From Megasphaera sp. NM10 (GTDB lineage: Bacteria > Bacillota > Negativicutes > Veillonellales > Megasphaeraceae), in contig NZ_APHY01000020.1 of assembly GCF_000417505.1 (NCBI RefSeq), positions 1 to 64,000 on the forward strand: a stretch of 64,000 bases of DNA, given 5' to 3'. Within the stretch, counting starts at the first letter, position 1. The number at the start of each line of letters is the position of its first letter. Below the pieces are notes generated by a model. That model was not told the origin of the DNA and made no database searches. It worked only from the letters and a program-made list of their open reading frames with translations. This document shows, piece after piece, positions 38,662-60,562 of this stretch. The position numbers and the translations under genes are program-made.

Positions 38662-38769
38662 TGTAGGGGCTTGCCGTGGCAAGCCCGTCTCAGAATATGA
38701 ATGATTTTCCGGTTCAAGGAGAACGTCGCCTGATATCCAGCGGGTCGCCCACGTGGCGACCCCTACAGT
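38662..38769. repeat. CACGTG double-hairpin element
   Basis: Left hairpin GGGCTTGCC-GT-GGCAAGCCC (38667-38686). Right hairpin GGGTCGCC-CACGT-GGCGACCC (38742-38762). The two ends have different stem sequences, each self-complementary. Ends TGTAGGGG and CCCCTACA. Confidence 0.8.
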
Positions 38770-38771
38770 AA

Positions 38772-38807
38772 AAAGGCTTGTCGCACGGCGACAAGCCTTT
38801 TTTTTTA
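38772..38807. terminator. Terminator shared by convergent genes
   Basis: AAAAGGCTTGTCGC, loop ACG, GCGACAAGCC followed by eight T; the opposite strand also ends in T, serving potE. Confidence 0.8.
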
Positions 38808-40130
38808 TTTAATTTCCACGATGGTCTGCTTCATGATGGTGAAGCGGATGACGTATACCAGCCATCCCAGGAAGACGGCGAAACAGCCGCCGAGGAAGGT
38901 CGTGGCATCGGTGGTGGTCAATGCATATACGCAATAGATAATGGATACGCCTGCCAGGAATATCGACGTATTTCTGTTACAGACTTCATTGGGGATATGT
39001 TCCTTGGTGAGGATCGTCGTCAGGGCCCCGGCACAGAGCATGTAGGGGATGACGTTGGTGACGACGGCCAGGTTGGCCAGGAGTTCGAACTGGGCGGCCA
39101 GGGTCGGGCTGATGGTCATGAGGGCCAGGAGGCTCTGCATGCAGAGGATGCACAACATGCCTTTGACCGGGACGTCAGCGCTTGTGACTTTGGCGAAAAT
39201 CTTGGGGAACAGGCCGCGCTGGGCGCTGGTCTTGAAGACGCGGGCCAGGGTGAACTGCCAGGACAAGAGGGAACCGGCACAGGAGAACACCATCAGGCCC
39301 ATGACGGCTTTGCCGGCCGTATCGCCGAGCATGTACGAGAAGGCCAGGCCGAAGGGAGCGCTCGATGCCAGGATTTCCGCATTGGGGACGATGCCTGCAA
39401 TGACGTTCGTCGAGGCGACGTAGATGATGGCGACGCCGAGGGTGCTGACGAAAGTGGCAATAGGAACGGATTTCTTCGGATTTTCAACGGCATCCATGTT
39501 GACTGCTGCCGATTCGAGTCCCAAGAAGGACCACAAGGTCAGGGCGATGGAATTGCCGACGGCATCGCTGAGTCCCAGGTTATTGGGGTTCCACGAAGCC
39601 AGCCAGGTAGCCGGGCTGAACCAATGCCAGCCGATGATGGAAATGCCCAGGACCGGGATGATGGCACCCCAGATGGTGATGGCACTGAGCTTGCCGGAAT
39701 AACGGGAGCCGCTGAAGTTGAGGGCTGCCGCGATCCACAATAAAGCGATCGTATATAAACACGTCTGTAACGGCGTAAAGGTTGTCTCAAGGAAACCGGC
39801 GCCGTAGCCGACCGCCGTAATGGCGATAGCGACGTTTGCAATTACGATGGAAACAGAGTAGGCGTAATTAGCCATAAAATGTCCTACACGCCCGAAAGCG
39901 TATTCGGAGTAACCGCCCATACCACCTGGCTTTGTCGTGAACATGCCACATCGGGCAAAAGCCATGGCCAGGGCTAAAGAGCCTAGTGAGGTAATAATCC
40001 AGGAAATAATCGAGATCGTACCGACTTCGGCGAGCTTGGTCGGCAGCATGATGATACCGGCGCCAAGCATGTTGGCAGCAGTGACAAAGGTCAACTGTAC
40101 CACAGACATTTTACGACATGTAGTTTTCAT
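38805..40130 (-). CDS. potE: Putrescine:ornithine antiporter-like APC transporter (PotE)
   Basis: A 441-residue APC-family transporter with twelve hydrophobic segments. MSVVQLTFVTAANMLGAGII, MLPTKLAEVGTISIISWII, GGMGGYSEYAFG, TNVIAGIVPNAE and LALMTISP match recalled E. coli PotE closely along the full length, more so than lysine-cadaverine CadB. It would exchange a basic amino acid for its decarboxylated amine, raising pH or supplying polyamine. No decarboxylase gene is adjacent, so the substrate pair is inferred from similarity. Confidence 0.88.
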   Translation of the reverse strand: MKTTCRKMSVVQLTFVTAANMLGAGIIMLPTKLAEVGTISIISWIITSLGSLALAMAFARCGMFTTKPGGMGGYSEYAFGRVGHFMANYAYSVSIVIANVAIAITAVGYGAGFLETTFTPLQTCLYTIALLWIAAALNFSGSRYSGKLSAITIWGAIIPVLGISIIGWHWFSPATWLASWNPNNLGLSDAVGNSIALTLWSFLGLESAAVNMDAVENPKKSVPIATFVSTLGVAIIYVASTNVIAGIVPNAEILASSAPFGLAFSYMLGDTAGKAVMGLMVFSCAGSLLSWQFTLARVFKTSAQRGLFPKIFAKVTSADVPVKGMLCILCMQSLLALMTISPTLAAQFELLANLAVVTNVIPYMLCAGALTTILTKEHIPNEVCNRNTSIFLAGVSIIYCVYALTTTDATTFLGGCFAVFLGWLVYVIRFTIMKQTIVEIK

Positions 40131-40285
40131 TATCAGTCCTTCTTTCGTTAGTGATGCGTATAAGCATGGCTTGAAATTTTTAGCAAATTAATTCTATCAT
40201 TTTTGCCGGGAAAATTAAATACTTTTTGAAAAAACGTTATATGTATTTGGGCCACTTTTCACGCTCTATATTCCAAATGGGAATA

Positions 40286-40454
40286 GAGTTTAGTGGTTCG
40301 TGTTTCGTGGCTCGTAGCACTGTAGGAATCGTACGTGGGGACCGTTGGGAATTTGAATGAGTTTCCCAGCAATCTGAATGGAAGATTGCATAATCCTGAA
40401 GCGGGCGCTACGTGGTTGCCCCTACAGAAATTTAAAAATATCAGCTGACTGCTA
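40286..40454. repeat. Heptamer remnant plus degenerate double-hairpin element
   Basis: Heptamers TTAGTGG, TTCGTGT, TTCGTGG, CTCGTAG (40290-40317) run directly into a degraded double-hairpin element (40321-40427) ending in CCCCTACAG. Confidence 0.7.
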
Positions 40455-40456
40455 AA

Positions 40457-40489
40457 AAAGGCTTGCCGCCGAAGCGACAAGCCTTTTTA
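40457..40489 (-). terminator. Terminator of the first thiolase gene
   Basis: On the minus strand AAAAAGGCTTGTCGC pairs with GGCGGCAAGCC followed by TTTTTT. Confidence 0.8.
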
Positions 40490-40505
40490 CACATGAGAGA
40501 TGAAA

Positions 40506-41687
40506 TTAGTCGATGTTTTCTACGACGCAAGCCGTACCCTGGCCGCCACCGATGCACAGTGTAGCCAAACCGTATTTGCCGCCGACTTCTTTCAAGCCAT
40601 AGAGCAAGGTTACGAGGATACGAGCGCCCGATGCACCAATCGGATGGCCGAGGGCGATAGCGCCGCCATGGATGTTGACTTTGTCCATATCGAAACCGAG
40701 TTCACGGCAGCAGTATACAGCCTGAGCTGCGAATGCTTCGTTAGCTTCGACGAGGTCGAGGTCTTTGACTTCCAGGCCTGCTTTAGCCAATGCTTTACGG
40801 GAAGAAGGAACAGGGCCGGTACCCATGATAGCGGGATCTACGCCAGCAGAAGCATAGCTTACAATCTTAGCCATCGGTTTGAGGCCGAGTTCTTTAGCTT
40901 TATCAGCGGACATAACTACGAAGGCAGCTGCGCCGTCGTTGATGCCGGAAGCGTTACCAGCCGTAACGGTGCCGCCTTTTTTGAAGGCCGGTTTCAATTT
41001 AGCAAGGCCTTCCAGGGTCGTGCCTTCACGCGGGAATTCGTCCGTGTCGATGACGACGTCCTGTTTCTTCTGATGAACCGTTACCGGAACGATCTGGGAT
41101 TTGAATGCGCCGCTCTTGATAGCTTCGCAAGCTTTGACCTGAGAACGGACACCGAGTGCGTCCTGGTCTTCACGAGTGATGCCGAAACGTTCAGCAACGT
41201 TTTCAGCCGTGATGCCCATATGATAGTCGTTGAATGCGTCCCAGAGGCCATCTTTGATCATCGTATCGACGAGGACACCATTGCCCATGCGATAGCCATA
41301 ACGAGCTTTCGGAACGGCGAAGGGAGCCATGGACATGTTTTCCATGCCGCCTGCTACGATGACGTCAGCGTCGCCGGCTTTGATCATCTGAGCTGCCAAG
41401 GATACGCAGCGGAGACCGGAACCGCAAACTTTATTGACCGTAAGAGCCGGGACTTCAATCGGCATACCAGCTTTGATCATAGCCTGACGAGCCGGGTTCT
41501 GACCCTGAGCAGCCTGGAGGACGTTGCCCATTACGACTTCGTCGACATCTTTGCCTTCGATACCAGCGCGTTTGAGCGCTTCTTTAATGACGACAGCACC
41601 GAGTTCTACAGCCGGTGTGTTTTTGAAACCGCCGCCGAATTTACCAATTGCCGTACGGCAAGCACTTACGATAACTACTTCTTTCAT
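40506..41687 (-). CDS. thlA: Acetyl-CoA C-acetyltransferase (thiolase), first copy
   Basis: A 393-residue biosynthetic thiolase that condenses two acetyl-CoA to acetoacetyl-CoA. Catalytic Cys88 lies in [22 protein letters not shown], the His of [12 protein letters not shown], and Cys of [10 protein letters not shown] complete the site. The start at 41687 is set by AAGGAGTGATTCC; an in-frame start 28 codons upstream has no site. It is one of two tandem paralogues, fitting butyrate or longer-chain fatty acid formation. Strong codon bias suggests high expression. Confidence 0.95.
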
Positions 41688-41820
41688 TGGAATCACTCCT
41701 TGAAAATTTTTACGTATTGAAATAGATGCCGGTGTATCAGTATGAGAGGATGCACCGTGCGAAAGCGTCATATTATAAATGACACTCTGATATTGCTATC
41801 ATACACCATTTTAAAGAAAA

Positions 41821-41858
41821 TGTATAGAGAACGTTCCAAAAATTACGTACTCTATACA
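41821..41858. promoter_or_regulatory. Inverted repeat between the two thiolase genes
   Basis: TGTATAGAGAACGT, 10-base A/T-rich centre, ACGTACTCTATACA: 14-base arms with one mismatch. It lies upstream of thlA and just past the end of the second thiolase. It could be an operator or a T-poor terminator. Confidence 0.45.
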
Positions 41859-41899
41859 TCTCCATTACTTATTGCTAGGGAATAGGGAATTTTGTTAAA

Positions 41900-43083
41900 T
41901 TACAGACGTTCTACGATGATAGCCGTGCCCTGGCCGCCGCCGATGCAGAGGGAAGCCAGACCATATTTACCGTTGATTTCCGGTTCAGCCAATGCGTAGA
42001 GCAAGGTGACGACGATACGAGCGCCGGAGCAGCCGATCGGATGGCCGAGGGCGATAGCGCCGCCGTGGATGTTGACTTTGTCCATGTTGAGGCCGAGTTC
42101 GCGGCAGCAGTATACGGACTGAGCTGCGAAAGCTTCGTTCAATTCGATGAGGTCCATCTGGTCGACGTTCATGCCGGTCTTCTTCATGACTTTGCGGACT
42201 GCCGGAACCGGGCCGGTACCCATGATAGCCGGTTCAACACCAGCCGAAGCCCAGTCGATGATGCGAGCCAGCGGTTTGATGCCGAGTTCTTTAGCTTTTT
42301 CAGCGGACATTACGACAACAGCAGCTGCGCCGTCGTTGATGCCGGAGGCGTTACCAGCGGTAACCGTGCCGTTTTTGATGAAGGCCGGACGGAGTTTAGC
42401 CAAGGTTTCCATGGTGCAGTTCGGGCGGATGAATTCGTCTTTGTCGACGATGACATCGCCTTTTCTCTTATGAACCGTTACCGGAACGATCTGGCTGTCG
42501 AATTTGCCTTCCTGCTGAGCTTTGTAAGCCAGGTTTTCAGAACGGCAAGCCAATTTATCCTGATCTTCACGGGTTACGCCAAAGCGGGCAGCGACGTTTT
42601 CAGCCGTTACGCCCATGTGGTAATTGTTTTCTGTGCAGAACAGGCCATCGCGCATGAGCAAGTCTTCGAGGACGCCGTTACCCATACGGTAGCCGCGGCG
42701 GCCTTTAGCGATGGAGTAGGGGGCGTTGGACATGGATTCCATACCGCCGGCTACGATGATGTCGGCATCGCCGAGTTTGATCTGCTGGGATGCGAGGGAA
42801 ATGGCACGCATACCGGAACCGCAGAGTTTATTCAATGTGAAAGCAGGAACTTCCTGAGGAATACCCGAATGGAGGGCTACCTGACGGGCCGTGTTTTCAC
42901 CGCAGCCAGCCTGGAGTACGTGGCCCATGATACTTCGTCGATCTGATCTACAGGAATACCTGCGCGTTTGATTGCTTCAGTAACAGCAGCGACACCGAGG
43001 TCTATAGCGGTGACGTCTGCGAACTGGCCATTGAAACTGCCGATGGCCGTACGGCAAGCACTTACGATAACAGCATCTCTCAT
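41900..43083 (-). CDS. Acetyl-CoA C-acetyltransferase (thiolase), second copy, frameshifted
   Basis: The ATG at 43081-43083 begins [20 protein letters not shown] and the frame reaches QIDEV, then breaks. One base out of phase the thiolase continues as [20 protein letters not shown] to the stop at 41900. One base is missing at about 42930-42933; restored length is 394 residues. Catalytic motifs [24 protein letters not shown] and [10 protein letters not shown] are intact. It is closely similar to the downstream thiolase, pointing to tandem duplication. Whether the break is real or a consensus error cannot be told here. Confidence 0.92.
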
Positions 43084-43605
43084 TAGAAAAACCATCCTTT
43101 CTGATGTGGAACAGAGTATAGAATAATATAGTATATAAGACTTTTTTGACGGAGCCGCCGCTTACGCAGCTCCTTGGGGGTTACGCTGAAATGAAGAACT
43201 TGAGTTCTAAATTTCACAATCTCCATGTCTATATAGTACATTTTTTCACAATGAAATGCAAGAGGAAAATGAATTTTTCTTATGCTAGATACTCATGCTA
43301 AAGGAAGAAGCAGATGCGAAAAGAATAAAGTGGACGAATAATTCGCTATGCGTATAGTTATGTAAGGGCCGTCCCAGCGGGCGGCCCGGCTCTCCTCATA
43401 GGAGAGCTGTCAGCGAAGCTGACTGAGAGGTTGCTCTTTCAACATAGTTTGTAGTACGGAGTTTGTAGGGGCGCCACGTGGGGAGCCCGTTATGAATTTT
43501 GGAAATTCTCTCAGCAAACGGAGTGGGAAATCGCACATTTCCTAGGCGGGCCGCCCTTTGGGACGGCCCCTACGAACCCCTAGCCCCTAGCCACGAGCCA
43601 CTAAA
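43084..43605. repeat. Repeat-rich spacer
   Basis: No gene seen in the larger part. It holds hairpin GGGCCGTCC-CAGC-GGGCGGCCC (about 43368-43388), a short double-hairpin repeat (43388-43433), a double-hairpin element (43463-43573) and a heptamer array TACGAAC, CCCTAGC, CCCTAGC, CACGAGC, CACTAAA (43571-43605). Confidence 0.75.
43463..43573. repeat. CACGTG double-hairpin element
   Basis: Starts TTGTAGGGGCGCCACGTGG. The interior contains TCAGCAAACGGAGTGGGAAA. The right end hairpin GGGCCGCCC-TTT-GGGACGGCCCC finishes with CTAC. Confidence 0.8.
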
Positions 43606-43641
43606 AAAGGGCTTGCCGCGTCGCGGCAAGCCCTTTTCCTA
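43606..43641 (-). terminator. Terminator of the 26-residue peptide gene
   Basis: On the minus strand AAAAGGGCTTGCCGCG pairs with CGCGGCAAGCCC followed by TTTTTT, directly after the small gene's stop codon. Confidence 0.85.
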
Positions 43642-43647
43642 TCCCTC

Positions 43648-43728
43648 TTAAAGAAGATGAGCGATGAAACTGTATGAAAGTAAAGCACTCATGGAGATGA
43701 TGATTTTTGCATTGGCACTTAAGTTCAT
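43648..43728 (-). CDS. 26-residue hydrophobic peptide
   Basis: A tiny gene too short for usual gene finders. The ATG at 43726-43728 follows AAAAGAGGTAAGAACT, and the frame MNLSANAKIIISMSALLSYS plus six residues (ending AHLL) stops at TAA 43648-43650. Seven bases later comes a strong terminator, and TATAAT at about 43755 upstream is a plausible -10. Promoter, ribosome site, frame and terminator form a complete unit. The peptide could form one short membrane helix. It may be a small membrane protein or toxin-like peptide; no family is recognised. Confidence 0.55.
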   Translation of the reverse strand: MNLSANAKIIISMSALLSYSFIAHLL

Positions 43729-43759
43729 AGTTCTTACCTCTTTTCTTCCTTATTATATG

Positions 43760-44218
43760 ACGATACTTAATAATTTTAAATGATTACCAGATATTCGTTC
43801 TACCTGTAGGAGAACTCTTTATCTATAAATATAATAACATACGAGTAAATAAAATCAATGGCTGAAAAATGCAACGACAGGCTGATAAATGATTTAAAGG
43901 CAATAAATGGCTAAATGACGATATAAAATCAAGAAAATGGGGGAGCTGATTTTTTAAAAAGAAGAAAGATGAGGTAAAAAACAGGAAGTATAAAGCACTG
44001 TAAAATAGATATTTATTCATAACAGAAAAATATTAAAATTTATGTTTAAATAAAGGAAGAACTTAAAACTTAGTAAAAGACGCTTTTCTCGGCACTAGCG
44101 GCATGGCGTGAAATGCCTTATAATAAGTATATCTGCCAGATGACAGGTTGAGTGTTTGGCGGATGATATCCATTAAAGATGCTATTATTAATGTATTATA
44201 TATATTAGGAGGAAGACT
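43760..44218. other. A+T-rich gene-free stretch
   Basis: Much richer in A+T than the rest of the window. Open frames on the minus strand (for example 43823-44020) lack ribosome sites and look like chance. A TATAAT at about 44119 may be the promoter for the gene at 44219. Nothing else is recognised. Confidence 0.5.
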
Positions 44219-44851
44219 ATGGGATTTTTTGATGCCTTTTTTAAAGAACATCAGCGGACGAAGAGCGAGGAGATCTATGACAATGCCTTGCAGATCTTTA
44301 ATTCACCGGAATTGCAGAACCAGGCTTTATCGGGAGAGCTGGCCGACAAGGTACGGCATGGGGAAGACTGCGATGTCCTTCCCGGAGCTTACGGCCGTTT
44401 TGGCCATGATGCGACCAATCCCATCCCCGTCAACGGACCGAGCGGTGAATTCGTCTATTTGTCGCGCCTGCGCCTGCGCCGGACGGGTTCCATGGTCTTT
44501 TTCCACAAGGCCGGTCAGGTCGGGAACCTGGACGTCTTTGAATTGACCAATGTCAGTGGCAAGTTCGTCGACCGCCTGTATGTCGACATGTATCATCCCC
44601 GCTGTTCCCGCCGTTATCCCGACGGCTATACGCTGGAACGGGAAGCCGTCTTCCCGCGGGGCGTGACGACGACGTTGGCCGATTTCCCCAAAGGCCTCTA
44701 TAAGGCCATCAAGAAGGAAGCCAAGCTGCGCCTGGGCATCGACGTCGCTGAAAAGGAAAGCGACTGCATCGATGTGCCGGCCGTACAGGCTGCTTTGGAC
44801 CAGCTGCGGCAGAAAAGGCCGGCGGCTCCCATCATGAAGCCATTGAAATAA
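44219..44851 (+). CDS. Conserved-looking protein of unknown function
   Basis: A 210-residue soluble protein starting MGFFDAFFKEHQRTKSEEIY behind TAGGAGG. The centre (YGRFGHDATNPIPVNGPSGE, then VYLSRLRLRRTGSMVFFHKA and RLYVDMYHPRCSRRYPDGY) looks like an enzyme or binding domain with several aromatic and basic residues, but I do not recognise it. No signal peptide or membrane segment. It has its own spacing from DUF1653 downstream (59 bases with a possible TATAAT), so it may be monocistronic. Confidence 0.75.
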   Translation: MGFFDAFFKEHQRTKSEEIYDNALQIFNSPELQNQALSGELADKVRHGEDCDVLPGAYGRFGHDATNPIPVNGPSGEFVYLSRLRLRRTGSMVFFHKAGQVGNLDVFELTNVSGKFVDRLYVDMYHPRCSRRYPDGYTLEREAVFPRGVTTTLADFPKGLYKAIKKEAKLRLGIDVAEKESDCIDVPAVQAALDQLRQKRPAAPIMKPLK

Positions 44852-44910
44852 AGAGAAACTATGGTATAATTACACCAGGTTAGTAATGTAGATTATTAGG
44901 AGGGTTATCG

Positions 44911-45141
44911 ATGAGAGAATTACCGAAAGCACATGAAATTTGGCGCCACTTCAAGAAGAATACCTATGAAATTATTACCATTGCCGAACATACGGAGACA
45001 GGTGAAAAATTCGTCATTTACAAAGCCTTGCACGACACGATGAAGACCTATGCCCGTCCGCTGAAGGATTTCATGAGCGAAGTCGATAAGGAAAAATATC
45101 CCCGTGCCGAACAGGATTACCGCTTCGTCAAAGTTAAATAA
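44911..45141 (+). CDS. DUF1653 protein
   Basis: A 76-residue DUF1653 protein. HEIWRHFKKNTYEIITIAEH and FVIYKALHDTMKTYARPLKD are the family hallmarks (H-F-K..Y, VxYxaL, R-x-xxxF). Members are small beta-rich cytoplasmic proteins of unknown function. AGGAGGG precedes the ATG. Confidence 0.88.
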   Translation: MRELPKAHEIWRHFKKNTYEIITIAEHTETGEKFVIYKALHDTMKTYARPLKDFMSEVDKEKYPRAEQDYRFVKVK

Positions 45142-45143
45142 TC

Positions 45144-45172
45144 TTGACAAGGCCTGTGAAGGCTGATATAAT
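45144..45172 (+). promoter_or_regulatory. Promoter of infC-rpmI-rplT
   Basis: TTGACA (45144-45149), 17-base spacer, TATAAT (45167-45172): a near-consensus strong promoter. Confidence 0.88.
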
Positions 45173-45189
45173 ATGTACTGTTGAAAATA

Positions 45190-45290
45190 AAGCAGAAGCT
45201 ATCCGCTTCTCACCTTACAAGGCGCTGGAGTCACTAAGGTCTATGACGGAAACGTAGAGCGGATAGCGATGCTATCCGTTCTTTTTTATT
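45190..45290 (+). promoter_or_regulatory. Transcription attenuator in the infC leader
   Basis: GCGGATAGC (45259-45267) can pair with GCTATCCG (45271-45278) to make a terminator followed by six T (45282-45287). It can instead pair with upstream GCTATCCGC (45198-45206), which would prevent the terminator. The segment CTCACCTTACAAGGCGCTGG between them is a candidate ligand site. In Firmicutes, IF3-L35-L20 operons are controlled by L20 binding to such leaders. That L20 is the ligand here is inferred. Confidence 0.78.
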
Positions 45291-45306
45291 TCGGAGGTGA
45301 AAGACG

Positions 45307-45819: not shown

Positions 45820-45835
45820 CAGGAGGACAATTATT

Positions 45836-46033
45836 ATGCCGAAATTGAAAACTCGCCGTGCTGCGGCAAAACGCTTTAACACAACTGGTACAGGTAAAAT
45901 CAAACGCATGAAACCGTATAAGAGCCACATCCTGGAAAGCAAGAGCCCGAAACGTAAACGTAACCTGAGAAAAGCTACGCTCGTTTCCAAGACCATGACC
46001 GAAGCCGTCCGCAAGATGTGCCCGTTCATCTAA
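45836..46033 (+). CDS. rpmI: 50S ribosomal protein L35
   Basis: A 65-residue basic protein ([20 protein letters not shown]) of the standard length, 16 bases after infC with an AGGAGG site. Second gene of the infC-rpmI-rplT operon. Confidence 0.97.
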
Positions 46034-46076
46034 TAGCGTAATATACTTTTTGATATAGATTCGGAGGAATAGACTA

Positions 46077-46486: not shown

Positions 46487-46491
46487 TTGCA

Positions 46492-51924: not shown

Positions 51925-52173
51925 GGGGCTGGCAGCTAGCAGTTAGCCGTTAGCAGCTTGGGCGTCTGGTTTTTACGAACTGCTAACAATGAATAACTTA
52001 AACAGGGACTACGCACGAAGACTTATGTCATCATGCGTGGTCCCTGTTGTTTTATAGTTCGTAGGGGTCGCCGCGTGGGCGACCCGTTGGATTTGGATGA
52101 TTATTCTAGCAAACTGGGCGGTAAATCGTATATATTTCTAGAGCGGGCTCGCCACGTGCGAGCCCCTACAGCT
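51925..52173. repeat. Repeat island between rlmH and tRNA-Lys
   Basis: Heptamers GCAGCTA, GCAGTTA, GCCGTTA, GCAGCTT (51932-51959) come first. A hairpin ACAGGGACTACGCA pairing with TGCGTGGTCCCTGT (about 52003-52050) follows, and then a full double-hairpin element (52060-52170). No gene. Confidence 0.78.
52060..52170. repeat. CACGTG double-hairpin element, well-formed copy
   Basis: Left hairpin GGGTCGCC-GCGTG-GGCGACCC (52065-52085). Interior GATTTGGATGATTATTCTAG with CAAACTGGG. Right hairpin GGGCTCGC-CACGT-GCGAGCCC (52145-52165). Each stem is perfect yet the two differ in sequence. Confidence 0.85.
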
Positions 52174-52210
52174 TAAAAAAGGCTTGCCGCACATGCGACA
52201 AGCCTTTTTC
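52174..52210 (-). terminator. Terminator of tRNA-Lys
   Basis: On the minus strand AAAAAGGCTTGTCGCA pairs with TGCGGCAAGCC followed by TTTTTT. Confidence 0.85.
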
Positions 52211-52214
52211 ATTC

Positions 52215-52290
52215 TGGTGGACCATCAGGGGATCGAACCCTGGACACCCTGATTAAGAGTCAGGTGCTCTGCCAGCTGAGCTAATGGTCC
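52215..52290 (-). tRNA. tRNA-Lys (anticodon CTT)
   Basis: 76 nt. Acceptor GGACCAT pairs with ATGGTCC, anticodon loop CTCTTAA in stem CCTGA/TCAGG, T-loop TTCGATC, CCA encoded. Confidence 0.96.
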
Positions 52291-52336
52291 ATATTTTGTT
52301 GTCCTTCGTACTCGCTGTTTCCTGAGCACATGTAAT

Positions 52337-52365
52337 ATAATACACTAAACCTCAGAGAAATGCAA
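52337..52365 (-). promoter_or_regulatory. Promoter of tRNA-Lys
   Basis: On the minus strand TTGCAT (52365-52360), 17-base spacer, TATTAT (52342-52337). Confidence 0.7.
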
Positions 52366-52497
52366 GCGCTTTTTTAAGAAAATTTACAGAATCTTGAATT
52401 TCCCCCGATTCTTGATTTTGGCGACACGGCGAATGTATAATGAAAGAAGTGATATTTTACAAAAACTACTCGTTTGTTGATAGATTGAAAGTGAGCG

Positions 52498-53967
52498 ATG
52501 TGTATGATTACTTATAATGGCAATGGCGGCATGGACACTGTCGCTGTCGGCCTGAATGAACGGGGGTCGACGCTGCGCCAGCTGCCCGAAGGGGATGTCC
52601 AGCTCATCCGGGCCTATGCCGGACAGCACCCGGAGATTTTGCAGCATACGTCCCTTCACGTCTTCCACTGCCTGTCTGACGGCCGGGCCAGGACCTATTT
52701 CCTCATCGGCTTGGAAGGGAAGCCCATCCGCTATTCGACGTATGAAGATTTCCGCATGGCCCGGCGCCTCATGGCCGCAGCCATGAAAGAAGGCGTCAGC
52801 GAACTGGCTGTCATGGCCGATACCCTGGATATGGACCTGGGGTCCCTCATCGATGGCCTGCTCTACCGTAATTACGAATTCAATCACTATAAACGCCAGG
52901 CCAAGAGCCGGACTATCGGGAATATCAATATCCTGACCCACAGCCTGCGCCCGAAGGAATTCAATTCCATGTGCTACATGTATACATCCATCTATGAAGG
53001 CATCTACGCGGCGCGGGACCTGGTCAACATGCCGTCCAATGATTTGACGCCGCGCAAGTTTGCCGATATCGTCGGGGCCATGCTCAAAGGCGACAACATC
53101 CTCATAGAGAATCTCAATAAATGGGCCCTGGAAAAACGCCATATGGGCGGCATCGTCGCCGTCGGCAAGGGCAGCATGAACCCGCCCCAGCTCCTGTCCA
53201 TTGCCTACCAGGGCGACCCTAACAGCCGGGAAGTCCTGGGCATCGTCGGCAAGGGCGTCACTTATGACAGCGGCGGCCTGTCCCTCAAGAGCCATGCCAA
53301 TCTGGAATTCATGAAGGACGACATGGCCGGTGCCGCAGCGGCTGTCGGCGTCATGCGGGCTTTGATGCTGCTCAAATATCCCGTCAACGTCCTGGCCGTC
53401 CTCCCGCTGGTCGAAAATATTCCCTCCGGCATGGCTTATCACGTCGACGACATCCTGACCATGTACAACGGCAAGACGGTCGAAGTCAAGAACACCGATG
53501 CCGAAGGGCGGCTCATCCTGGCCGATGCCCTGACGTATGCTCAGGAAAAGGGGGCGACGCGTCTCATCGACCTGGCGACTTTGACCGGTGCCTGCGTGAC
53601 GGCCCTGGGGACCGTGCGGACGGGCATGATCGGCAACGACCAGGAATGGATGAACCGTTTCTTCAGCGCTGCGACGGAAGTTCACGAAAAGATATGGCAG
53701 CTGCCGGCTGATGAAGAATATGAAAAGTTCCTGGAAAGCGACGTCGCCGATTTGAAGAACGTCGGCGGCTCCGAAGCGGGAGCCATCACGGCAGGCCTCT
53801 TCCTCAAGCAGTTCGTCCACGACGGCACGCCGTGGATCCACTTGGACATCGCCGGCCCGGCCTTCAATGAAAAGGCCGACGAAACGGGCCTCATCGGGGC
53901 GACCGGCGTCGGCATCAAATCCATTCTTCACTTATTGCAGGGAGGCGTGGCGTCCCATGATCGTTGA
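52498..53967 (+). CDS. pepA: Leucyl aminopeptidase (M17)
   Basis: A 489-residue cytosolic dizinc aminopeptidase. The C-terminal catalytic domain carries GKGVTYDSGGLSLKS (Lys and Asp ligands), MKDDMAGAAAAVG, and NTDAEGRLILADAL, the diagnostic M17 signature. The start codon at 52498 (MCMITYNG) has only a weak site (GAAAGTGAG); the second Met two codons later is equally possible. It overlaps the PHP gene by 11 bases. Confidence 0.93.
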   Translation: MCMITYNGNGGMDTVAVGLNERGSTLRQLPEGDVQLIRAYAGQHPEILQHTSLHVFHCLSDGRARTYFLIGLEGKPIRYSTYEDFRMARRLMAAAMKEGVSELAVMADTLDMDLGSLIDGLLYRNYEFNHYKRQAKSRTIGNINILTHSLRPKEFNSMCYMYTSIYEGIYAARDLVNMPSNDLTPRKFADIVGAMLKGDNILIENLNKWALEKRHMGGIVAVGKGSMNPPQLLSIAYQGDPNSREVLGIVGKGVTYDSGGLSLKSHANLEFMKDDMAGAAAAVGVMRALMLLKYPVNVLAVLPLVENIPSGMAYHVDDILTMYNGKTVEVKNTDAEGRLILADALTYAQEKGATRLIDLATLTGACVTALGTVRTGMIGNDQEWMNRFFSAATEVHEKIWQLPADEEYEKFLESDVADLKNVGGSEAGAITAGLFLKQFVHDGTPWIHLDIAGPAFNEKADETGLIGATGVGIKSILHLLQGGVASHDR

Positions 53968-54781
53968 TTTACATATGCATACGACTTGTTCAGACGGCGT
54001 ATATACACCGGAACAACTAACACAGATGGCCGTCGACGCCGGGCTCAGCGTCATGGCTATTTCCGACCACGATACGGTAGCGGCTTATGACGGCAGCCAT
54101 CGTTTCGCCGCAGGCGTCCGCGTCATCCCGGCTATTGAAATCAGCTCGGAATGTGACGGCGAAGATGTGCACATCCTGGGCTACGGCATCGACACGGCTG
54201 ACGCCGGCTTGCAGGCTTACTGCGCACAATTCAAGGAACGGCGCTTCAACAGGGCCCTGGAAATCGTCGACCGCTGCCGCAGCTTAGGCTATGACATCAA
54301 TCGCAGCGGCATCGAAGCGACACTGCGCCAGGGCGGGACTGTCGGCCGGCCCCACATTGCCCGCCTGCTCGTGGCCAAGGGCTATTTCCCCGACGTCAAG
54401 ACGGTCTTCGATAAACTGCTCTACCGCGGCGGTCCGGCTTACGTCCCTTATCACCGCCGCAGCATCGACGACTGCGTGGCCCTCATCCGCCAGGCCGGCG
54501 GTACGGCCATCCTGGCCCATCCGGGCCTGCTCAAGCGGACGCTGGACCAGGTCCTGGCCCATGACTTTGACGGCGTCGAAGTCTATCATCCCAAGAACCG
54601 CGGCCGCTATAAAGAATTCTTGAAACTGGCTGAGGACCGCCATGGGTACGTCAGCGGCGGCTCAGATTTCCACGGCACGACAGGCCGTTTCCCCGAAAAG
54701 GTCGGCGTCTTTACCGTCGATGCCAAGGCGGTAAAAGCTCTGCTCGACCATGTAGAAGGGAACCTAAAGAAAAGCAGGTGA
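53957..54781 (+). CDS. PHP-domain phosphoesterase (YciV/RNase AM-like)
   Basis: A 274-residue PHP phosphoesterase. DLHMHTTCSDG (His6, His8), ISDHDT (about 35-40), EISSECDGEDVHILGYG, and GGSDFHG near 237 supply the metal ligands of the family. Relatives hydrolyse 3',5'-bisphosphorylated nucleotides or trim rRNA 5' ends. The ATG at 53957 sits inside the end of pepA behind GGGAGGCG; a longer in-frame start has no site. Confidence 0.9.
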   Translation: MIVDLHMHTTCSDGVYTPEQLTQMAVDAGLSVMAISDHDTVAAYDGSHRFAAGVRVIPAIEISSECDGEDVHILGYGIDTADAGLQAYCAQFKERRFNRALEIVDRCRSLGYDINRSGIEATLRQGGTVGRPHIARLLVAKGYFPDVKTVFDKLLYRGGPAYVPYHRRSIDDCVALIRQAGGTAILAHPGLLKRTLDQVLAHDFDGVEVYHPKNRGRYKEFLKLAEDRHGYVSGGSDFHGTTGRFPEKVGVFTVDAKAVKALLDHVEGNLKKSR

Positions 54782-54785
54782 GATT

Positions 54786-55619
54786 ATGGAGGTTTTCGGT
54801 TTTATCGGCGCCAGCGGCACGGGCAAGAGCCATCACGCCCTGGTCGTCGCCTATGACCACGATATCCAGGCCATCATCGACGACGGCCTGCTCATCGACC
54901 ACAACCGCATCGTCGCCGGCCGGTCGGCCAAAGAAGAGACGAACCGCCTGAAAGCCGTGCGCCGAGCTATCTTCAACAAGCCCGAAGACGCAGCGGCCAT
55001 GCGGGCGGCGCTGGAGAAGATACATCCCGATAAATTGCTCATCCTGGGCACGTCGAAGCACATGATACACCGCATCTGTGAGTCCCTGCACCTGCCGGAA
55101 GCGTCGCAGTTCATCCGCATCGAAGATGTGTCGTGCCCGTCGGAAATCGCCAAGGCCCGGGCCATCCGCATCAAAGAGGGCAAGCACATCATCCCCGTGC
55201 CGACGATGGAACTGAAGCCCCATTTCCAGGGCTATCTCCTGGACCCGATCCGTTCCTTCTTCTATGGCCGCAACGGCAAGAAGATATCGCCTTTTGAACG
55301 GTCCGTCGTCCGGCCCGTCTTCAGTTATTACGGGAAACTGACCTTTTCCAACGACGTCTTGGAAGCCCTGGTGCGCCATGCCCTGGCCAAGAACGACGGC
55401 GTCACCAAGATCAACCGCCTGCGGGTGGCCATCAATTACAACTCGACGCGCAATGGCCTGGCCATCATCCTGTCCCTGACCATCGCCTATGGCCAGAACA
55501 TCAAGAAGCTCATGAGCCGTATCCGCCGGGACATCCAGCAGGAAGTGGAATACACGACGGGCATGTCCGTCGAGATCCTCAAAATCACGGTCCGTAGCAT
55601 TTCCCAGCCTGAAGACTAG
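54786..55619 (+). CDS. P-loop protein with Asp23/Gls24-like C-terminal domain
   Basis: A 277-residue protein. The N-terminal half is a nucleotide-binding fold with P-loop GFIGASGTGKSHHAL (5-19) and DDGLLIDHNRIVAGRSAKEE. The C-terminal about 100 residues (SYYGKLTFSNDVLEALVRHA, then GLAIILSLTIAYGQNIKKLM and TTGMSVEILKITVRSI) follow the strand-helix pattern of Asp23/Gls24 proteins, like the pair at 23163-23820. The domain reading is by eye. It follows the PHP gene by 4 bases, and its stop codon overlaps that of the convergent regulator gene. Confidence 0.75.
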   Translation: MEVFGFIGASGTGKSHHALVVAYDHDIQAIIDDGLLIDHNRIVAGRSAKEETNRLKAVRRAIFNKPEDAAAMRAALEKIHPDKLLILGTSKHMIHRICESLHLPEASQFIRIEDVSCPSEIAKARAIRIKEGKHIIPVPTMELKPHFQGYLLDPIRSFFYGRNGKKISPFERSVVRPVFSYYGKLTFSNDVLEALVRHALAKNDGVTKINRLRVAINYNSTRNGLAIILSLTIAYGQNIKKLMSRIRRDIQQEVEYTTGMSVEILKITVRSISQPED

Positions 55620-57094
55620 GCGTCGCCGTTTTCTTCGGTCAGGACCATCATGAGCGGCGTAATCAGGCCCCGCAGGGCGTCGACATTTTCCGCCGAGAAG
55701 CCCTTGTACTGAGGAGAATGGCTCAGGCCGTCGAAGAAATCATGCATACAGCCGATGAGCTGGGAATTATTGAGCAAGTAAATGGGCTTGGTCTGGGGCA
55801 ATATGTGGTGCGTGTTCTTTTTGAAGAAAGCTGACGTGTGATTGCCGTAAAAAGCGAGATTAGAAAAATTCGTATAACTGCTTTCTCCCGATGCCGGGAG
55901 GAGAATCCCGTAAGTAATGGCCGGGTTCTGCTTCATCTTTTCGACGATGAGGTTGAGCTGGGCCTTTCTTTCGTCTGGCGTCATCTGGTAGTTCATGTCG
56001 GTCAGGTAGAAGCAGCCCGTTTCCAGGTAGCGGATGATGGAATTCTTGGGCATGATGATTTTCATGCGCCCCTGTTCGATGATGCGGTACCAGATGTACT
56101 GGATGCGCCGGACCCATTCTTTGGTGGCATTGGGATATTTTCCTTCGTCGATGAGTTGGCACAGCGACGTATAGACTTCGTCGGGGAGGAGGAATTCCAG
56201 GCCGTTGGTCAGGAAGAAGAGGTAGTTGTTGGATGTAAAGAAGATGTCGCGGTAGCCGAATTTTTCCATGCCCAGGGACTGGCGGGGCTCCATGAGGACG
56301 GGCTGGACCATCATGTAGGCGCAGCACTTCTTATAGATTTCCCGGACCTGGGCCGGGTCGGTGATGGTCAGGCACATGTCGATGTAGTCGTCGCCGTCGA
56401 CGTAGTAGAGGTAGGCAAAGGCGTCTTTGAGGACGATGATGTTGCGGTACGATTCGTGGTCGATTTCGTGCATGGTGAAATTATAGGTCAATAAGTGGTC
56501 CAGACACTGATAGAGGCTGCTGGCGGCCTGGGGCATATGATCGGCAAAGACGTCCATCTTCAGGCCTAAGTGGACGTCGCAGGACCAGCGGTCGTTGTGA
56601 CATTCTTCCAGGAGCTGCCAGATGCCGTTCTGGTCGAGGACGTGGAACTGGCCGGTCATGACCAGCATTCCCTGGGACTGGAGGCCTTCCAGGTATTGGT
56701 GGAGCAGCTGGCACAGGGCCGTGTGGCAGTCAGCGCGGCCGGCGTAGAAATGGATGGCCTGGTCGCGGCTTTCACTTTTCCCCTTCCTGGTCTGGGCCTG
56801 GCGGTAGGCACGGCTTAGCAGGTCGTAGAGATGGAAGGCCAGATCCTGGCCGTCGTCGGCAAAGGAGAAGATGCGCTTCAGGTCCCCTTCCTGGTGCTGT
56901 TTCTGGGCCGTGTTGGCAAAGAAGCGGGCCATGTCCTCGTGGATGCGGTCGGCATGGCGTGAAGCCGGCAGGCGGGCGCCGTTGACCCATTTGCTGATGT
57001 AGGACATGTCGTAGTCGATGGCCTGGGATAAGGTCGTATATTTCGTCTCTGTATATTGCAGCAGCTGCTTGAGGACTTCTGCATAAGGATTCAT
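55616..57094 (-). CDS. Large transcriptional regulator with N-terminal helix-turn-helix
   Basis: A 492-residue protein. The N-terminal 60 residues (VLKQLLQYTETKYTTLSQAI, then DYDMSYISKWVNGARLPAS) form a Cro/CI-like helix-turn-helix. The remaining 430 residues are of unknown fold, with many aromatic and Cys residues, and may sense a ligand. The start at 57094 precedes the longer in-frame reading that would run through a tandem repeat; a weak AGGGAG site supports it. It is divergent from the CoA-transferase gene, so control of that gene is the natural guess. Confidence 0.78.
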   Translation of the reverse strand: MNPYAEVLKQLLQYTETKYTTLSQAIDYDMSYISKWVNGARLPASRHADRIHEDMARFFANTAQKQHQEGDLKRIFSFADDGQDLAFHLYDLLSRAYRQAQTRKGKSESRDQAIHFYAGRADCHTALCQLLHQYLEGLQSQGMLVMTGQFHVLDQNGIWQLLEECHNDRWSCDVHLGLKMDVFADHMPQAASSLYQCLDHLLTYNFTMHEIDHESYRNIIVLKDAFAYLYYVDGDDYIDMCLTITDPAQVREIYKKCCAYMMVQPVLMEPRQSLGMEKFGYRDIFFTSNNYLFFLTNGLEFLLPDEVYTSLCQLIDEGKYPNATKEWVRRIQYIWYRIIEQGRMKIIMPKNSIIRYLETGCFYLTDMNYQMTPDERKAQLNLIVEKMKQNPAITYGILLPASGESSYTNFSNLAFYGNHTSAFFKKNTHHILPQTKPIYLLNNSQLIGCMHDFFDGLSHSPQYKGFSAENVDALRGLITPLMMVLTEENGDA

Positions 57095-57131
57095 GAACAG
57101 GACTCCCTTGATGATAGATTTGAATACGTGT

Positions 57132-57158
57132 ATATTCCTTATATTCCTTATATTCATT
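57132..57158. repeat. Three tandem 9-bp repeats upstream of the regulator
   Basis: ATATTCCTT, ATATTCCTT, ATATTCATT in direct tandem, in the divergent promoter region. Confidence 0.8.
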
Positions 57159-57193
57159 ATATAGCCTGGCCAGGACACCTTCAAGGAAAGGCC

Positions 57194-57238
57194 TTGTCAT
57201 ATTTGTCATCTTTGAGGCAAGTTTTTCATCTTTTGTCA
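57194..57238. promoter_or_regulatory. Candidate operator with repeated TTGTCAT-like boxes
   Basis: TTGTCAT at 57194-57200 and 57203-57209, TTTTCAT at 57223-57229 and TTGTCA at 57234-57239 lie in the divergent spacer between the regulator and the CoA-transferase. A possible -10 (TATACT) follows near 57272. Binding by the adjacent regulator is inference. Confidence 0.4.
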
Positions 57239-57349
57239 CGGCTTTGTGCGTATTTTTCAAGGGCAAAAGGGGCTATACTAAAGCCAGAAGATGAGAAGAA
57301 AAAGAGCTCATCGAAGACAAGTAAGGAAATCTATAAGGAGGAAGTCATC

Positions 57350-58899
57350 ATGGCAAAACTGATTACAGCAGAAAATGCAGCATCGCTTATTAAAGATCGT
57401 TCGACTATCGCCGTTTGTGGTTTTGCACAGTGTGCATTGCCGGAAGAAGTATTGCAGGCCCTGGAAGACCGCTTTACCAAGACCGGATATCCGCAGCAGC
57501 TGACACTGGTCCATACGGCCGGCATCGGTGACGGTGTGAGCAAGGGTGCCAGCCATTTCGCCCACGAAGGCATGCTGAAACGGGTTATTGCCGGTCATTA
57601 CAACCTGGCTCCCAAACTGGGGAAACTGGTCATGGACAATAAGGTCGAAGGCTACAACCTGCCGCAGGGCACGATGGCCCAGTGGTTCCGCAGCATTGCC
57701 GGCCGCAAACCGGGCCTGTTTACCCGTGTCGGCCTCAATACCTTCGTCGACCCCCGCATCGAAGGCGGGAAATTGAACAGCATCACTAAGGAAGACCTGG
57801 TAGAAGTCAAGGAACTGGACGGCGAAGAATATCTCTGGTACAAACCGTTCCCCATCGACGTCGCTATCGTCCACGGGACCTGCGCCGACTTGAATGGCAA
57901 CGTATCGACGGATAATGAAGAAGTCCGCATGGAACTCCTGCCCATGGCCCTGGCAGCCAAAGCCAGTGGCGGCATGGTCATCGTCCAGGTCGAAACGCTG
58001 GCCGAAAACCGGACGATTCCGCCGAAACACGTCGTCCTGCCGGGCATCGACGTCGACTACATCGTCTTGTCCAAGGTCCGTCAGGTCCAGAACCCGGCTT
58101 ATACCGGTGAAATGCGTATGCCTTTGTCCCAGATTCCGCCGATGGAACTCAATGCCCGCAAGGTTATCGCCCGTCGGGCTGCGATGGAACTCGTTCCCAA
58201 CGCCGTCGTCAACCTGGGCATCGGGATTCCTGAAGGTGTTTCCAGCGTAGCTAACGAAGAAGGTATCGGCGACCAGCTGACCCTGACCGTCGAAGCCGGG
58301 CCTATCGGCGGCGTACCGGCCAGCGGCGCGGACTTTGGCGGTTCGGCCAACGCCGATGCCATCGTCGACCATCCGTATCAGTTCGACTTTTACGATGGCG
58401 GTGGCTTGGATATGGCTTTCCTGGGCATGGCAGAATGTAACGCCAAAGGCGACGTCAACGTCAGCAAGTTCAAAGACCGCATCGCCGGCTGCGGCGGCTT
58501 CATCAACATCACCCAGAATACGCATAAAGTCGTCTTCTGCGGCACCTTTACGGCCAAGGGCCTGCGCGAAGAAATCCGGGACGGCAAACTGGTCATCACC
58601 CATGAAGGGGCTGTCCAGAAATTCATCGATAAGGTCGGCCAGATTACCTTCAGTGCTGAATATGCCCATAAACACAACCAGCAGGTCATGTTCATCACCG
58701 AACGCTGTGTCTTCGTCCTCACCGATAAGGCTTAGTCCTCACGGAAATCGCACCGGGCGTGGATCTGCAAAAGGACATCCGCGACCAGATGGAATTCGTA
58801 CCGCACATCGCCGAAAATCTGAAGACCATGGATGAACGCCTCTTCCGCGATGAACCCATGGGCCTGGCCCAGGACATCTTTGAACAACAGGCGGGTTAG
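57350..58899 (+). CDS. Family I acyl-CoA:carboxylate CoA-transferase, C-terminal frameshift
   Basis: A CoA-transferase of the propionate/acetate CoA-transferase (Pct/YdiF) family that moves CoA between acetate, propionate, butyrate or lactate. The alpha-like half begins MAKLITAENAASLIKDRSTI. The beta-like half holds VNLGIGIPEGVSSVANEEG and TVEAGPIGGVPASG, where Glu315 should form the CoA thioester. As written it ends at 58735 after FVLTDKA. Adding one G at 58729-58730 restores FVLTDKGLVLTEIAPGVDL through to TAG at 58897-58899 (516 residues, normal). AAGGAGGAAG precedes the ATG. Fits end-product formation with NifJ and thiolase. Confidence 0.92.
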
Positions 58900-58910
58900 T
58901 GGATAGTGGC

Positions 58911-59029
58911 ACTGTAGGGGGCGCACGTGGGCGCCCCGTTCGGAATTTGGATGTTTCTCCCAGTAAACCGAATGGGAAATGGAAATCACATCATCCTGGA
59001 GCGGACGCCCCACGTGGCGCCCCTACAGA
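58911..59029. repeat. CACGTG double-hairpin element
   Basis: Left hairpin GGGGCGC-ACGTG-GGCGCCCC. Interior GGAATTTGGATG, CAGTAAACCG and GGGAAATGG. The right end ACGCCCCACGTGGCGCCCCT finishes ACAG. Confidence 0.82.
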
Positions 59030-59062
59030 AAAAGGGACCGTCCGAAGGGCGGTCCTTTTTCT
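59030..59062 (+). terminator. Terminator of the CoA-transferase gene
   Basis: AAAAAGGGACCGTCC, loop GAA, GGGCGGTCCTTTTTC. Confidence 0.8.
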
Positions 59063-59091
59063 TGACATCTCCCGTCTGCGGACGGTATAAT
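59062..59091 (+). promoter_or_regulatory. Promoter of the AICAR transformylase gene
   Basis: TTGACA (59062-59067), 18-base spacer, TATAAT (59086-59091). Confidence 0.85.
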
Positions 59092-59099
59092 AAATCTGA

Positions 59100-59198
59100 A
59101 ACATGTGACTGACGGAAGTGGAGTTACCACGGGGAGCATGATTCGTACGAGCCGACCGTCTGGGCGAAACGTTCCAGAAGTGTCGGTATTTTTTATTT
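59100..59198 (+). promoter_or_regulatory. ZTP (pfl) riboswitch with overlapping terminator
   Basis: ATGTGACTGACGGAAGTGG, TACCACGGGGAGCATGA and GCCGACCGTCTGGGC match by eye the conserved pfl/ZTP aptamer, including the GUGACUG and CCGNCUGGGC cores. CCGACCGTCTGG can also pair with CCAGAAGTGTCGG to form a terminator followed by TATTTTTTATTTTT (to 59198). ZTP binding to the aptamer would free the gene for transcription. The next gene uses ZMP (AICAR phosphate) as substrate, which fits. Confidence 0.88.
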
Positions 59199-59225
59199 TT
59201 GCTTAACTATTCAGGAGGAATCACC

Positions 59226-60400
59226 ATGAAAGAACTGCAATTAAAATACGGCTGCAATCCCAACCAGTCGTCGGCCCGGGTTTATATGAAAGATGGCAGC
59301 GACCTGCCCTTTACGGTCCTCAACGGCCGTCCCGGTTATATTAATTTGCTCGACGCCTTCAACAGCTATCAGCTGGTCAAAGAATTGAAAGAAGCGACAG
59401 GCCTTCCGGCAGCGGCTTCCTTCAAGCACGTCAGCCCGGCTGGGGCCGCCGTCGCTACGGACATGAGTGATACCCTGAAAAAGATATACTGGGTCGACGA
59501 TTTGAAATTGTCCCCCCTGGCTTCGGCCTATGCCTGCGCCCGCGGTGCTGACCGCATGAGCTCGTACGGCGATTTCGTCGCTCTGTCCGACGTCTGCGAT
59601 GTCGAAACGGCAACGCTCCTCAAGCGGGAAGTCTCGGACGGCGTCATCGCTCCGGGCTACAGCGACGAAGCCTTGGCTATTTTGAAGACCAAGAAGAAGG
59701 GGAATTACTGCGTCCTCCAGATAAACCCGGACTACAAGCCGCGCCTCGTCGAATCGAAGGAAGTCTATGGCGTCACTTTTGAACAGGAACGCAATGAAGC
59801 CAAGATTACGACGGACCTCTTCAAAAATGTCCCGACGAAGAACAAGAATATCCCGGCAGCAGCTCAGCGCGATTTGATGATCGCCCTCATCACTTTGAAA
59901 TATACCCAGTCCAATTCGGTCTGCTACGTCAAAGACGGCATGACCATCGGCGTCGGCGCTGGCCAGCAGTCCCGCGTCCACTGCACGCGCCTGGCTGGCA
60001 ACAAGGCCGATATCTGGTGGCTCCGCCAGAACCCGAAAGTCCTGAACCTGCCTTTCCGCGACGATGTCCGCCGTCCGAACCGCGACAACGCTATCGACGT
60101 CTACATCTCCGATGACTACGAAGACGTCCTGGCCGACGGCATCTGGCAGGACTTGTTCACGGAAAAACCGGAACCGCTCACACGGGAAGAAAAGAAAGCC
60201 TGGATCGCCCAGCTCCACGGCGTAGCCTGGGCAGCGATGCCTTCTTCCCCTTTGGCGACAACATTGAACGGGCCCATCGCAGCGGCGTCGACTACATCGC
60301 CCAGGCCGGCGGCTCCATCCGCGACGACAATGTCATCGAAACGTGCGATAAATACAACATCGCCATGGCCATGACCGGCCTGCGCCTGTTCCATCATTAA
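59226..60400 (+). CDS. purH: Stand-alone AICAR formyltransferase (PurH C-terminal domain type), frameshifted
   Basis: Transfers a formyl group from 10-formyl-THF to AICAR in purine synthesis. [14 protein letters not shown] opens the AICARFT domain, [12 protein letters not shown] holds the catalytic Lys-His, and [20 protein letters not shown] is the second signature. There is no IMP cyclohydrolase domain. As written the frame derails after LHGVAW; one C restored at 60226-60227 gives [20 protein letters not shown] and ends RLFHH at 60398-60400 (391 residues, normal for this form). AGGAGGAA precedes the ATG. Controlled by the ZTP riboswitch. A separate cyclohydrolase must exist elsewhere. Confidence 0.92.
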
Positions 60401-60453
60401 GGCTTCCCCTGGGAAGAAGAAGGACCGCTCGCGGGGTTCCTATGCTCTATAGT

Positions 60454-60562
60454 TTGTAGGGGCCACGTGGGAGACCTGTTAGGAATTTGGATGATTCTTC
60501 TAGCAAACGGGTCGGGAAATCGTACCTATCCCAGAGCGGGCGCCCCACGTGGCGCCCCTACA
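60454..60562. repeat. CACGTG double-hairpin element
   Basis: Starts TTGTAGGGGCCACGTGG. Interior GGAATTTGGATGATTCTTC, TAGCAAACGGG and GGGAAATCG. Right hairpin GGGCGCC-CCACGT-GGCGCCCC. Confidence 0.85.

What the first reader, a model, noticed from the sequence alone, without database searches (positions are those of the whole stretch)
38662..60562. Dispersed ~110-bp elements made of two end hairpins whose stems change sequence but stay paired
Seen: similar elements at 35181-35289, 38662-38769, 40321-40427, 43463-43573, 52060-52170, 58911-59029 and 60454-60562, plus single ends at 2733, 35347, about 8328 and 62770. Each runs from TGTAGGGG to CCCCTACA. It has a small CACGTG-centred hairpin at each end and an interior with conserved blocks ATTTGGATGATT, AGCAAAC and GGGAAATCG. 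The end stems differ between copies and between the two ends of one copy (GGGCTTGCC/GGCAAGCCC, GGGTCGCC/GGCGACCC, GGGCTCGC/GCGAGCCC) yet remain perfectly complementary. Compensating change implies selection on the hairpins as RNA or single-stranded DNA. Inference: a non-autonomous element moved by a hairpin-recognising enzyme (REP/RAYT or IS200/IS605-like logic), or a structured RNA processing or termination module.
Basis: partly seen in the sequence, partly recalled or inferred. Interest (0 to 1): 0.78.

Follow-up and report, generated by a model that had tools for sequence, protein, structure and literature searches.

The report
REPIN repeats lacking their usual transposase
The scattered 110-base elements are a bacterial repeat family of a known kind (pairs of GTAG-tagged REP hairpins, called REPINs), abundant in two sister species in which the enzyme that normally copies such repeats was not found.

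Summary
The elements are real. Each end is a unit of about 25 bases: foot GTAG, GGG, a variable arm, loop ACGTG, the complementary arm, CCCG. Units occur singly or as inverted pairs with a conserved spacer. The 2.61-Mb genome has 173 GTAGGGG..ACGTG matches; the reversed pattern has 5. This is the anatomy of GTAG-tagged REPs arranged as REPINs, and REP stems that vary yet stay paired are already described (PMC3733652, PMC2817692). Covariation is strong: on 33 distinct units, 40 cells changed on both sides against 15.6 in shuffles, 0 of 500 reaching it. I found no sign that RNA rather than DNA is selected, on small numbers. Among 61 genomes of the order the family fills this one (156) and one sister species (31), with 1 copy in a third. 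That third species has its own GTAGGGG REPINs, with another loop, around a RAYT-like gene. Neither carrier shows a canonical RAYT, so the population looks orphaned. The RAYT-like gene they share lies beside recO, folds as an HUH transposase and lacks tyrosine at the canonical position. The REP/RAYT guess holds; the structured-RNA guess is not supported.

The parts
2735..2759 (-). single REP unit, loop ACGTG, stem CGCCC
   Evidence: absent from the matching place in G002
8327..8351 (+). single REP unit of the second class, loop AAA, stem ACGCCC
   Evidence: near-identical unit at the G002 place
35181..35289 (+). eroded REPIN; both outer feet changed
   Evidence: no unit at the G002 place
35349..35372 (-). 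single REP unit, stem CGCC
   Evidence: no unit at the G002 place
38663..38766 (+). REPIN; stems CTTGC (left) and TCGCC (right)
   Evidence: the G002 place keeps one degraded unit
40321..40427 (+). eroded REPIN; both hairpins imperfect
   Evidence: absent in G002
43465..43573 (+). hybrid dimer: left ACGTG unit with a mismatch, right CAAA unit
   Evidence: G002 keeps only the right hairpin
52061..52169 (+). REPIN; stems TCGCC and CTCGC, both fully paired
   Evidence: absent from both G002 places that match its flanks
58914..59026 (+). REPIN; left stem paired, right with one imperfect pair
   Evidence: absent from both G002 places that match its flanks
60456..60561 (+). REPIN; left hairpin imperfect, right stem CGCC paired
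   Evidence: REPIN absent at the G002 place, where a CAAA unit lies nearby
62768..62792 (-). single REP unit of the second class, loop AAA, one mismatch
   Evidence: absent in G002

Best explanation
These are GTAG-tagged REP hairpins, single or as inverted pairs (REPINs): non-autonomous repeats that were copied as single-stranded DNA by a RAYT, a relative of the IS200/IS605 transposases. The enzyme would read the foot (GTAG) and the loop (ACGTG) and need the stem only to be paired, so stem sequence is free to differ between copies. Shown here: anatomy, copy number, covariation, near-confinement to two species. Inferred: copying by a RAYT (from other systems, and from the RAYT-like gene among REPINs of the same build in G001) and loss of the RAYT that served this family, leaving an orphan, eroding population.
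For: 173 matches against 5 reversed; 156, 31 and 1 in three genomes of 61, with 2 and 1 stray matches in two others. Fully complementary inner arms in 70 of 102 units, shuffles 19.2, largest 34; pair counts with slide control. 32 inverted doublets with related spacers. Same rule of constant foot, constant loop and several paired stems in G001 with loop ATTYAT, around a RAYT-like gene. In Anaerolineae MAGs, 3 of the 4 best RAYT-like loci examined hold GTAGGGG hairpins. Published work: TnpAREP reads GTAG plus loop or stem irregularity, and a mismatch in the stem lowers cleavage (PMC8266576, passages). Nearest neighbours among 19 full-length doublets are at most 92% identical, median 83%, so no recent burst is visible in this sample.
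Against: No canonical RAYT in G000 or G002, so the partner of this loop class is not shown. No clean empty site: G002 carries other repeats where G000 has REPINs. Stem types are few, so independent compensating events are few; two of the five measures do not exceed shuffles (393 and 106 of 500). The G001 gene scores below the curated RAYT cut-off (65.5 against 80 bits).
Confidence: 0.8

Rival explanations
1. The stems change mainly by exchange of whole hairpins at fixed GTAGGGG...CCCG slots (conversion between copies, or re-insertion at the same place), so paired changes do not come from step-by-step compensation. This may act together with the best explanation.
For: At C35:78462 nearby flanks align while stem CTTCC/GGAAG in G000 faces CTCGC/GCGAG in G002; at C35:55885 and C35:77313 both stem and loop differ at the same site. 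Of 37 units with collinear flanks, 14 hairpins are identical or nearly so and 9 sites hold a different or unclear hairpin. Stem TCGCC occurs with both loop classes in G002.
Against: Only three such sites, and the 78.4-kb region is a cluster of paralogous composite repeats, so orthology there is likely but not certain. It does not explain why pairing is so common in the copies that serve as sources.
Confidence: 0.3
2. The recO-linked HUH protein is the living partner: a domesticated RAYT that binds or processes these hairpins today.
For: It is the only RAYT-like protein found in both carriers; HUH motif invariant, IS200/IS605 and TnpAREP fold; a REPIN lies just behind the gene in G000.
Against: That REPIN is absent at the G002 gene. 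The protein is in 14 of 17 genomes of the family, of which only 3 have many GTAGGGG hairpins. The position aligned with the tyrosine of the G001 RAYT is S, N, H or C in 11 of 11.
Confidence: 0.12
3. Structured RNA: terminators or mRNA 3' stabilisers kept by selection on transcripts.
For: Nine of 11 window elements overlap no open reading frame of the greedy set; several lie next to terminator-like hairpins. In 14 recognisable orthologous hairpins, arms differ at 1 of 229 positions and flanks at 102 of 1150.
Against: No excess of G-U over A-C mismatches, on 9 cases. No Rfam match. The arm count is conditioned on detection; without that condition it is 24 of 172 against 269 of 2053 in flanks, partly through paralogous or poor alignments.
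Confidence: 0.1
4. Classical MITE of a double-strand DNA transposase with terminal inverted repeats.
For: The ends are inverted repeats of each other in foot and loop.
Against: Single units are as common as pairs in the fetched DNA (149 units, 32 doublets); the two ends never carry the same stem in 32 doublets. Target duplications were not tested systematically.
Confidence: 0.04

Closest known systems
GTAG-tagged REPs and their head-to-head dimers (Di Nocera et al. 2013, PMC3733652; abstract and sections on families, dimers and transposases read)
   Same: GTAG foot, paired stem with alternative complementary residues, inverted dimers with conserved spacer, frequent heterodimers, location between genes.
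   Different: Loop ACGTG and this spacer are not among what I read (the figure with consensus sequences is not held). The words Firmicutes, Clostridi and Megasphaera do not occur in the main text. No RAYT in the carriers.
REPINs (Bertels and Rainey 2011, PMC3116915; search listing and start of abstract only)
   Same: Two inverted REPs with a conserved spacer as the repeated unit, in about a hundred copies or more per genome.
   Different: Several stem types in one family and two ends that differ; partner RAYT not found.
REPIN family of sister genome G001
   Same: GTAGGGG foot, constant loop, several paired stems, CCCG end, inverted pairs.
   Different: Loop ATTYAT, another spacer, RAYT-like gene present, tandem arrays.
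TnpAREP systems of Stenotrophomonas and Marinomonas (PMC8266576, passages)
   Same: Perfect hairpin; recognition through GTAG and loop, with stem pairing needed and much of its sequence free.
   Different: Biochemistry known there; here only sequence evidence.

Membership tests
GTAG REP superfamily | unpaired GTAG at the foot of a short GC-rich hairpin | tested here: met
   25 GGG hairpins on GTAG in 176,824 bases, 0 on six other feet
GTAG REP superfamily | high copy number in the genome | tested here: met
   173 matches, reversed control 5
GTAG REP superfamily | extragenic location | tested here: met
   9 of 11 window elements overlap no ORF of a greedy set of 90 aa or more; the other two overlap minus-strand ORFs of 93 and 161 aa of unknown reality
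GTAG REP superfamily | stem varies with complementarity kept | tested here: met
REPIN | two inverted REPs with conserved spacer | tested here: met
   27 doublets in 406 kb of G000 and 5 in 400 kb of G002, stretches partly chosen for hits
REPIN | partner RAYT in the genome, flanked by the same REPs | tested here: not met
   no NF047646 match over cut-off in 17 genomes; Y1 matches in G000 and G002 are IS605, IS200, an IS605 relic and the recO-linked protein. Published REP genomes can lack it (PMC3733652)
REPIN | mobility: presence or absence at matched sites | tested here: inconclusive
   0 of 7 window doublets intact in G002 but the sites are filled with other repeats
IS200/IS605 element | left and right hairpins on the same strand around tnpA or tnpB | tested here: not met
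   ends are inverted and there is no gene inside
Structured RNA family | match to a described family, or G-U tolerated in the stem | tested here: not met
   at gathering thresholds; T-G 4 against C-A or A-C 5
RAYT (recO-linked protein) | HUH motif and IS200/IS605 fold | tested here: met
   Pfam Y1_Tnp only E 0.0096 and 0.023, under cut-off
RAYT (recO-linked protein) | tyrosine at the canonical position | tested here: not met
   S, N, H or C in 11 of 11 at the column of the G001 RAYT tyrosine; that this column is the catalytic one is recalled

The most novel reading that the evidence does not exclude
A REPIN population that has outlived its RAYT and evolves by exchange of whole hairpin cassettes at fixed GTAGGGG...CCCG slots, perhaps now served by a recO-linked HUH protein that has given up the transposase tyrosine, so that these repeats have become DNA structures maintained by the host.
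Probability: 0.12. Interest if true: 0.65.

Novelty: new member of a known kind. Interest (0 to 1): 0.38.

Why it matters
It adds a REPIN family in a group for which I found none described in the held library, and gives a comparison inside one genus: G001 with a RAYT-like gene and loop ATTYAT, G000 and G002 with loops ACGTG and (C)AAA and no canonical RAYT. That makes the foot-plus-loop recognition rule, and the fate of REPINs after RAYT loss, directly testable.

Tried and rejected
Autonomous full-length copy: the Y1 transposase genes found in G000 are not flanked by ACGTG hairpins in the loci read. IS200 gene L003: the GTAGGGG behind it is part of another sequence, not this family. G002 remnant at 87.9 kb: closest to the IS605 TnpA of G000, so not a RAYT relic. 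Viral spread: 0 contigs of IMG/VR with the strict pattern. Plasmids: 171 records match the query, the 10 listed all in its tRNA part, none over the REPIN. Common origin with Chloroflexi: 9 stretches match the strict pattern, but they sit among many other stems and loops, so I think convergence more likely. Fold of the whole element: 13 doublets give a long hairpin through foot and CACGTG with covariation term -0.03, no support. Purifying selection on the arms: disagree and the first is conditioned on detection, so I do not claim it. No covariance model was built, and R-scape was not at hand. Target-site duplications were not tested systematically. Bertels et al. 2017 on RAYT groups is not held.
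Full report
Observation. The seven listed elements and the single ends are real, and GTAGGGG..CACGTG occurs 8 times in the window against a shuffle mean of 0.03. The repeated unit is GTAG + GGG + about five variable bases + ACGTG + their complement + CCCG. Two things in the finding need correction: 6 of the 14 ends are fully paired with an intact foot, not all, and the ends at 8327, 43548-43573 and 62768 belong to a second class with loop (C)AAA.

Copy number and spread. The genome holds 173 matches to GTAGGGGN{2,14}ACGTG, reversed control 5. With a stricter pattern, 61 genomes of the order give 156 in G000, 31 in G002, 1 in G001, 2 in G013 and 1 in G027; the last three matches do not look like paired hairpins. 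With a loose pattern for any GTAGGGG..CCCG, G000 has 336 (reversed control 56), G002 253 (58), G001 105 (12), and the other 14 genomes of the family 1 to 8 each, at or below their controls in most.

Stems. Taking units without requiring pairing, 70 of 102 (83 from G000, 19 from G002) have fully complementary inner arms, against 19.2 in shuffles, largest 34; seven distinct paired arms occur. Counting each distinct arm pair once, 7 of 28 pair, shuffles 1.24, largest 6. Among 33 distinct units of 26 bases, 86.4% of cells pair and 40 cells changed on both sides, against 15.6 shuffled; sliding the partner by 1 to 3 columns gives 1 to 7. Two of the five measures did not exceed shuffles (393 and 106 of 500 reached them). 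The units fall into few stem types, so the number of independent events is small. A repeated exception is CGACC/GGGCG with an A-G mismatch, 5 units in G000 and 3 in G002.

DNA or RNA. In the 26 units with one or two mismatches, T-G occurs 4 times and C-A or A-C 5 times, so wobble is not favoured on the GTAG strand; the numbers are small. As DNA the doublet at 52061 folds with a local hairpin at each end (z -3.2); as RNA it folds end to end (z -4.4).

Doublets. 149 units and 32 inverted doublets were found in the 806 kb fetched (406 kb of G000, 400 kb of G002, partly chosen for hits). None of the 32 has the same stem at both ends; random pairing predicts 3.96, P = 0.011. Heterodimers are known for REPs and may escape removal of long hairpins (PMC3733652, section on dimers). 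In 19 doublets of 100-115 bases the nearest neighbour is at most 92% identical, median 83%.

Comparison with the sister species. G002 is largely syntenic and about 90% identical. None of the seven window doublets is intact at the matching place; two places keep one hairpin of the site (38.6 kb degraded, 43.5 kb CAAA class). The sites are not clean, because other repeats fill them. Of 143 units in fetched G000 DNA, 37 had both flanks collinear in fetched G002 DNA: 8 identical hairpins, 6 nearly so, 14 with none, 9 with a different or unclear hairpin (my reading of its list). In 14 recognisable pairs the arms differ at 1 of 229 positions, loops at 5 of 70, feet at 0 of 56 and flanks at 102 of 1150; the pair C35:78462, 4 of 16 in the arms, was left out of this sum. 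A test not conditioned on detection gave 24 of 172 in arms against 269 of 2053 in flanks, 12 loci, partly through paralogous or poor alignments. At three sites the hairpin as a whole differs.

Enzyme. G001 carries a RAYT-like gene (65.5 bits to NF047646, cut-off 80) between GTAGGGG hairpins with loop ATTYAT. G000 has two IS605-type TnpA (TnpB seen beside one), one IS200 TnpA and one divergent protein; G002 has an IS200 copy with a stop, an IS605 relic and the same divergent protein. No match over the RAYT cut-off was found in 17 genomes of the family. The divergent protein has recO within its locus in 9 of 12 loci tested; of the three without, one is the G001 RAYT-like gene used for contrast and one lies at a contig start. 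It has the IS200/IS605 fold (model mean pLDDT 85; the 28 best PDB matches are such transposases, TnpAREP 4er8 among them), an invariant HUH motif, no tyrosine at the column of the G001 RAYT tyrosine in 11 of 11, and one copy in 14 of 17 family genomes and in 0 of 44 others of the order; the second G001 match is the RAYT-like gene. That the aligned RAYT residue is the catalytic one is recalled, not tested.

What is known. REP stems that differ but stay complementary were noted in 2010 (PMC2817692, passages) and 2013 (PMC3733652). TnpAREP reads GTAG and loop or stem irregularities (PMC8266576, 12 of 52 passages). Loss of RAYTs with REPs remaining has been suggested before (PMC3686654, one passage; PMC3733652). 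Searches for REP or RAYT work in Firmicutes or Megasphaera in the held library showed none in the rows listed (15 of 279 papers listed; with 1, 1 and 0 papers); most subscription papers are not held.

Noticed in passing
G000:C35:98863-99339 (L091 1423-1914), orthologues in L066, L084-L090, L092, L093: A single-copy HUH-fold protein next to recO in this family, with the HUH motif and a WxYD motif invariant but without tyrosine at the canonical position: possibly a domesticated transposase.
   Followed up: partly
window 52212-58892: This 6.7-kb block is about 66 kb away in G002 (1521485-1528157), and in G000 it is bordered by the REPINs at 52061 and 58914, so the rearrangement breakpoints lie at repeats.
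   Followed up: partly
window 8538-8600, 43360-43460, 62664-62798 and other intergenic stretches: Intergenic DNA is a mosaic of other repeats: degenerate short tandem repeats such as TTCGTGG or CTAACAA, a GGCTCTCCT...AGAGAGGTT-like element, and further hairpins; they often replace each other between G000 and G002.
   Followed up: no
window, e.g. 38771-38805 and 52173-52210: Terminator-like hairpins share a GTCGC core: AAAAGG..GTCGC occurs 10 times in the window and 7 times in C35, the reversed pattern 0 and 1 times.
   Followed up: no
window 59095-59172 and 45184-45293: ZTP riboswitch just upstream of a gene with an AICARFT/IMPCHase domain and just after a REPIN; ribosomal protein L20 leader.
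   Followed up: no
L074-L082 (Anaerolineae and other Chloroflexi MAGs): Dense GTAGGGG hairpins with many stems and loops, and RAYT-like genes of 57-75 bits; 3 of 4 such loci examined hold GTAGGGG hairpins.
   Followed up: partly
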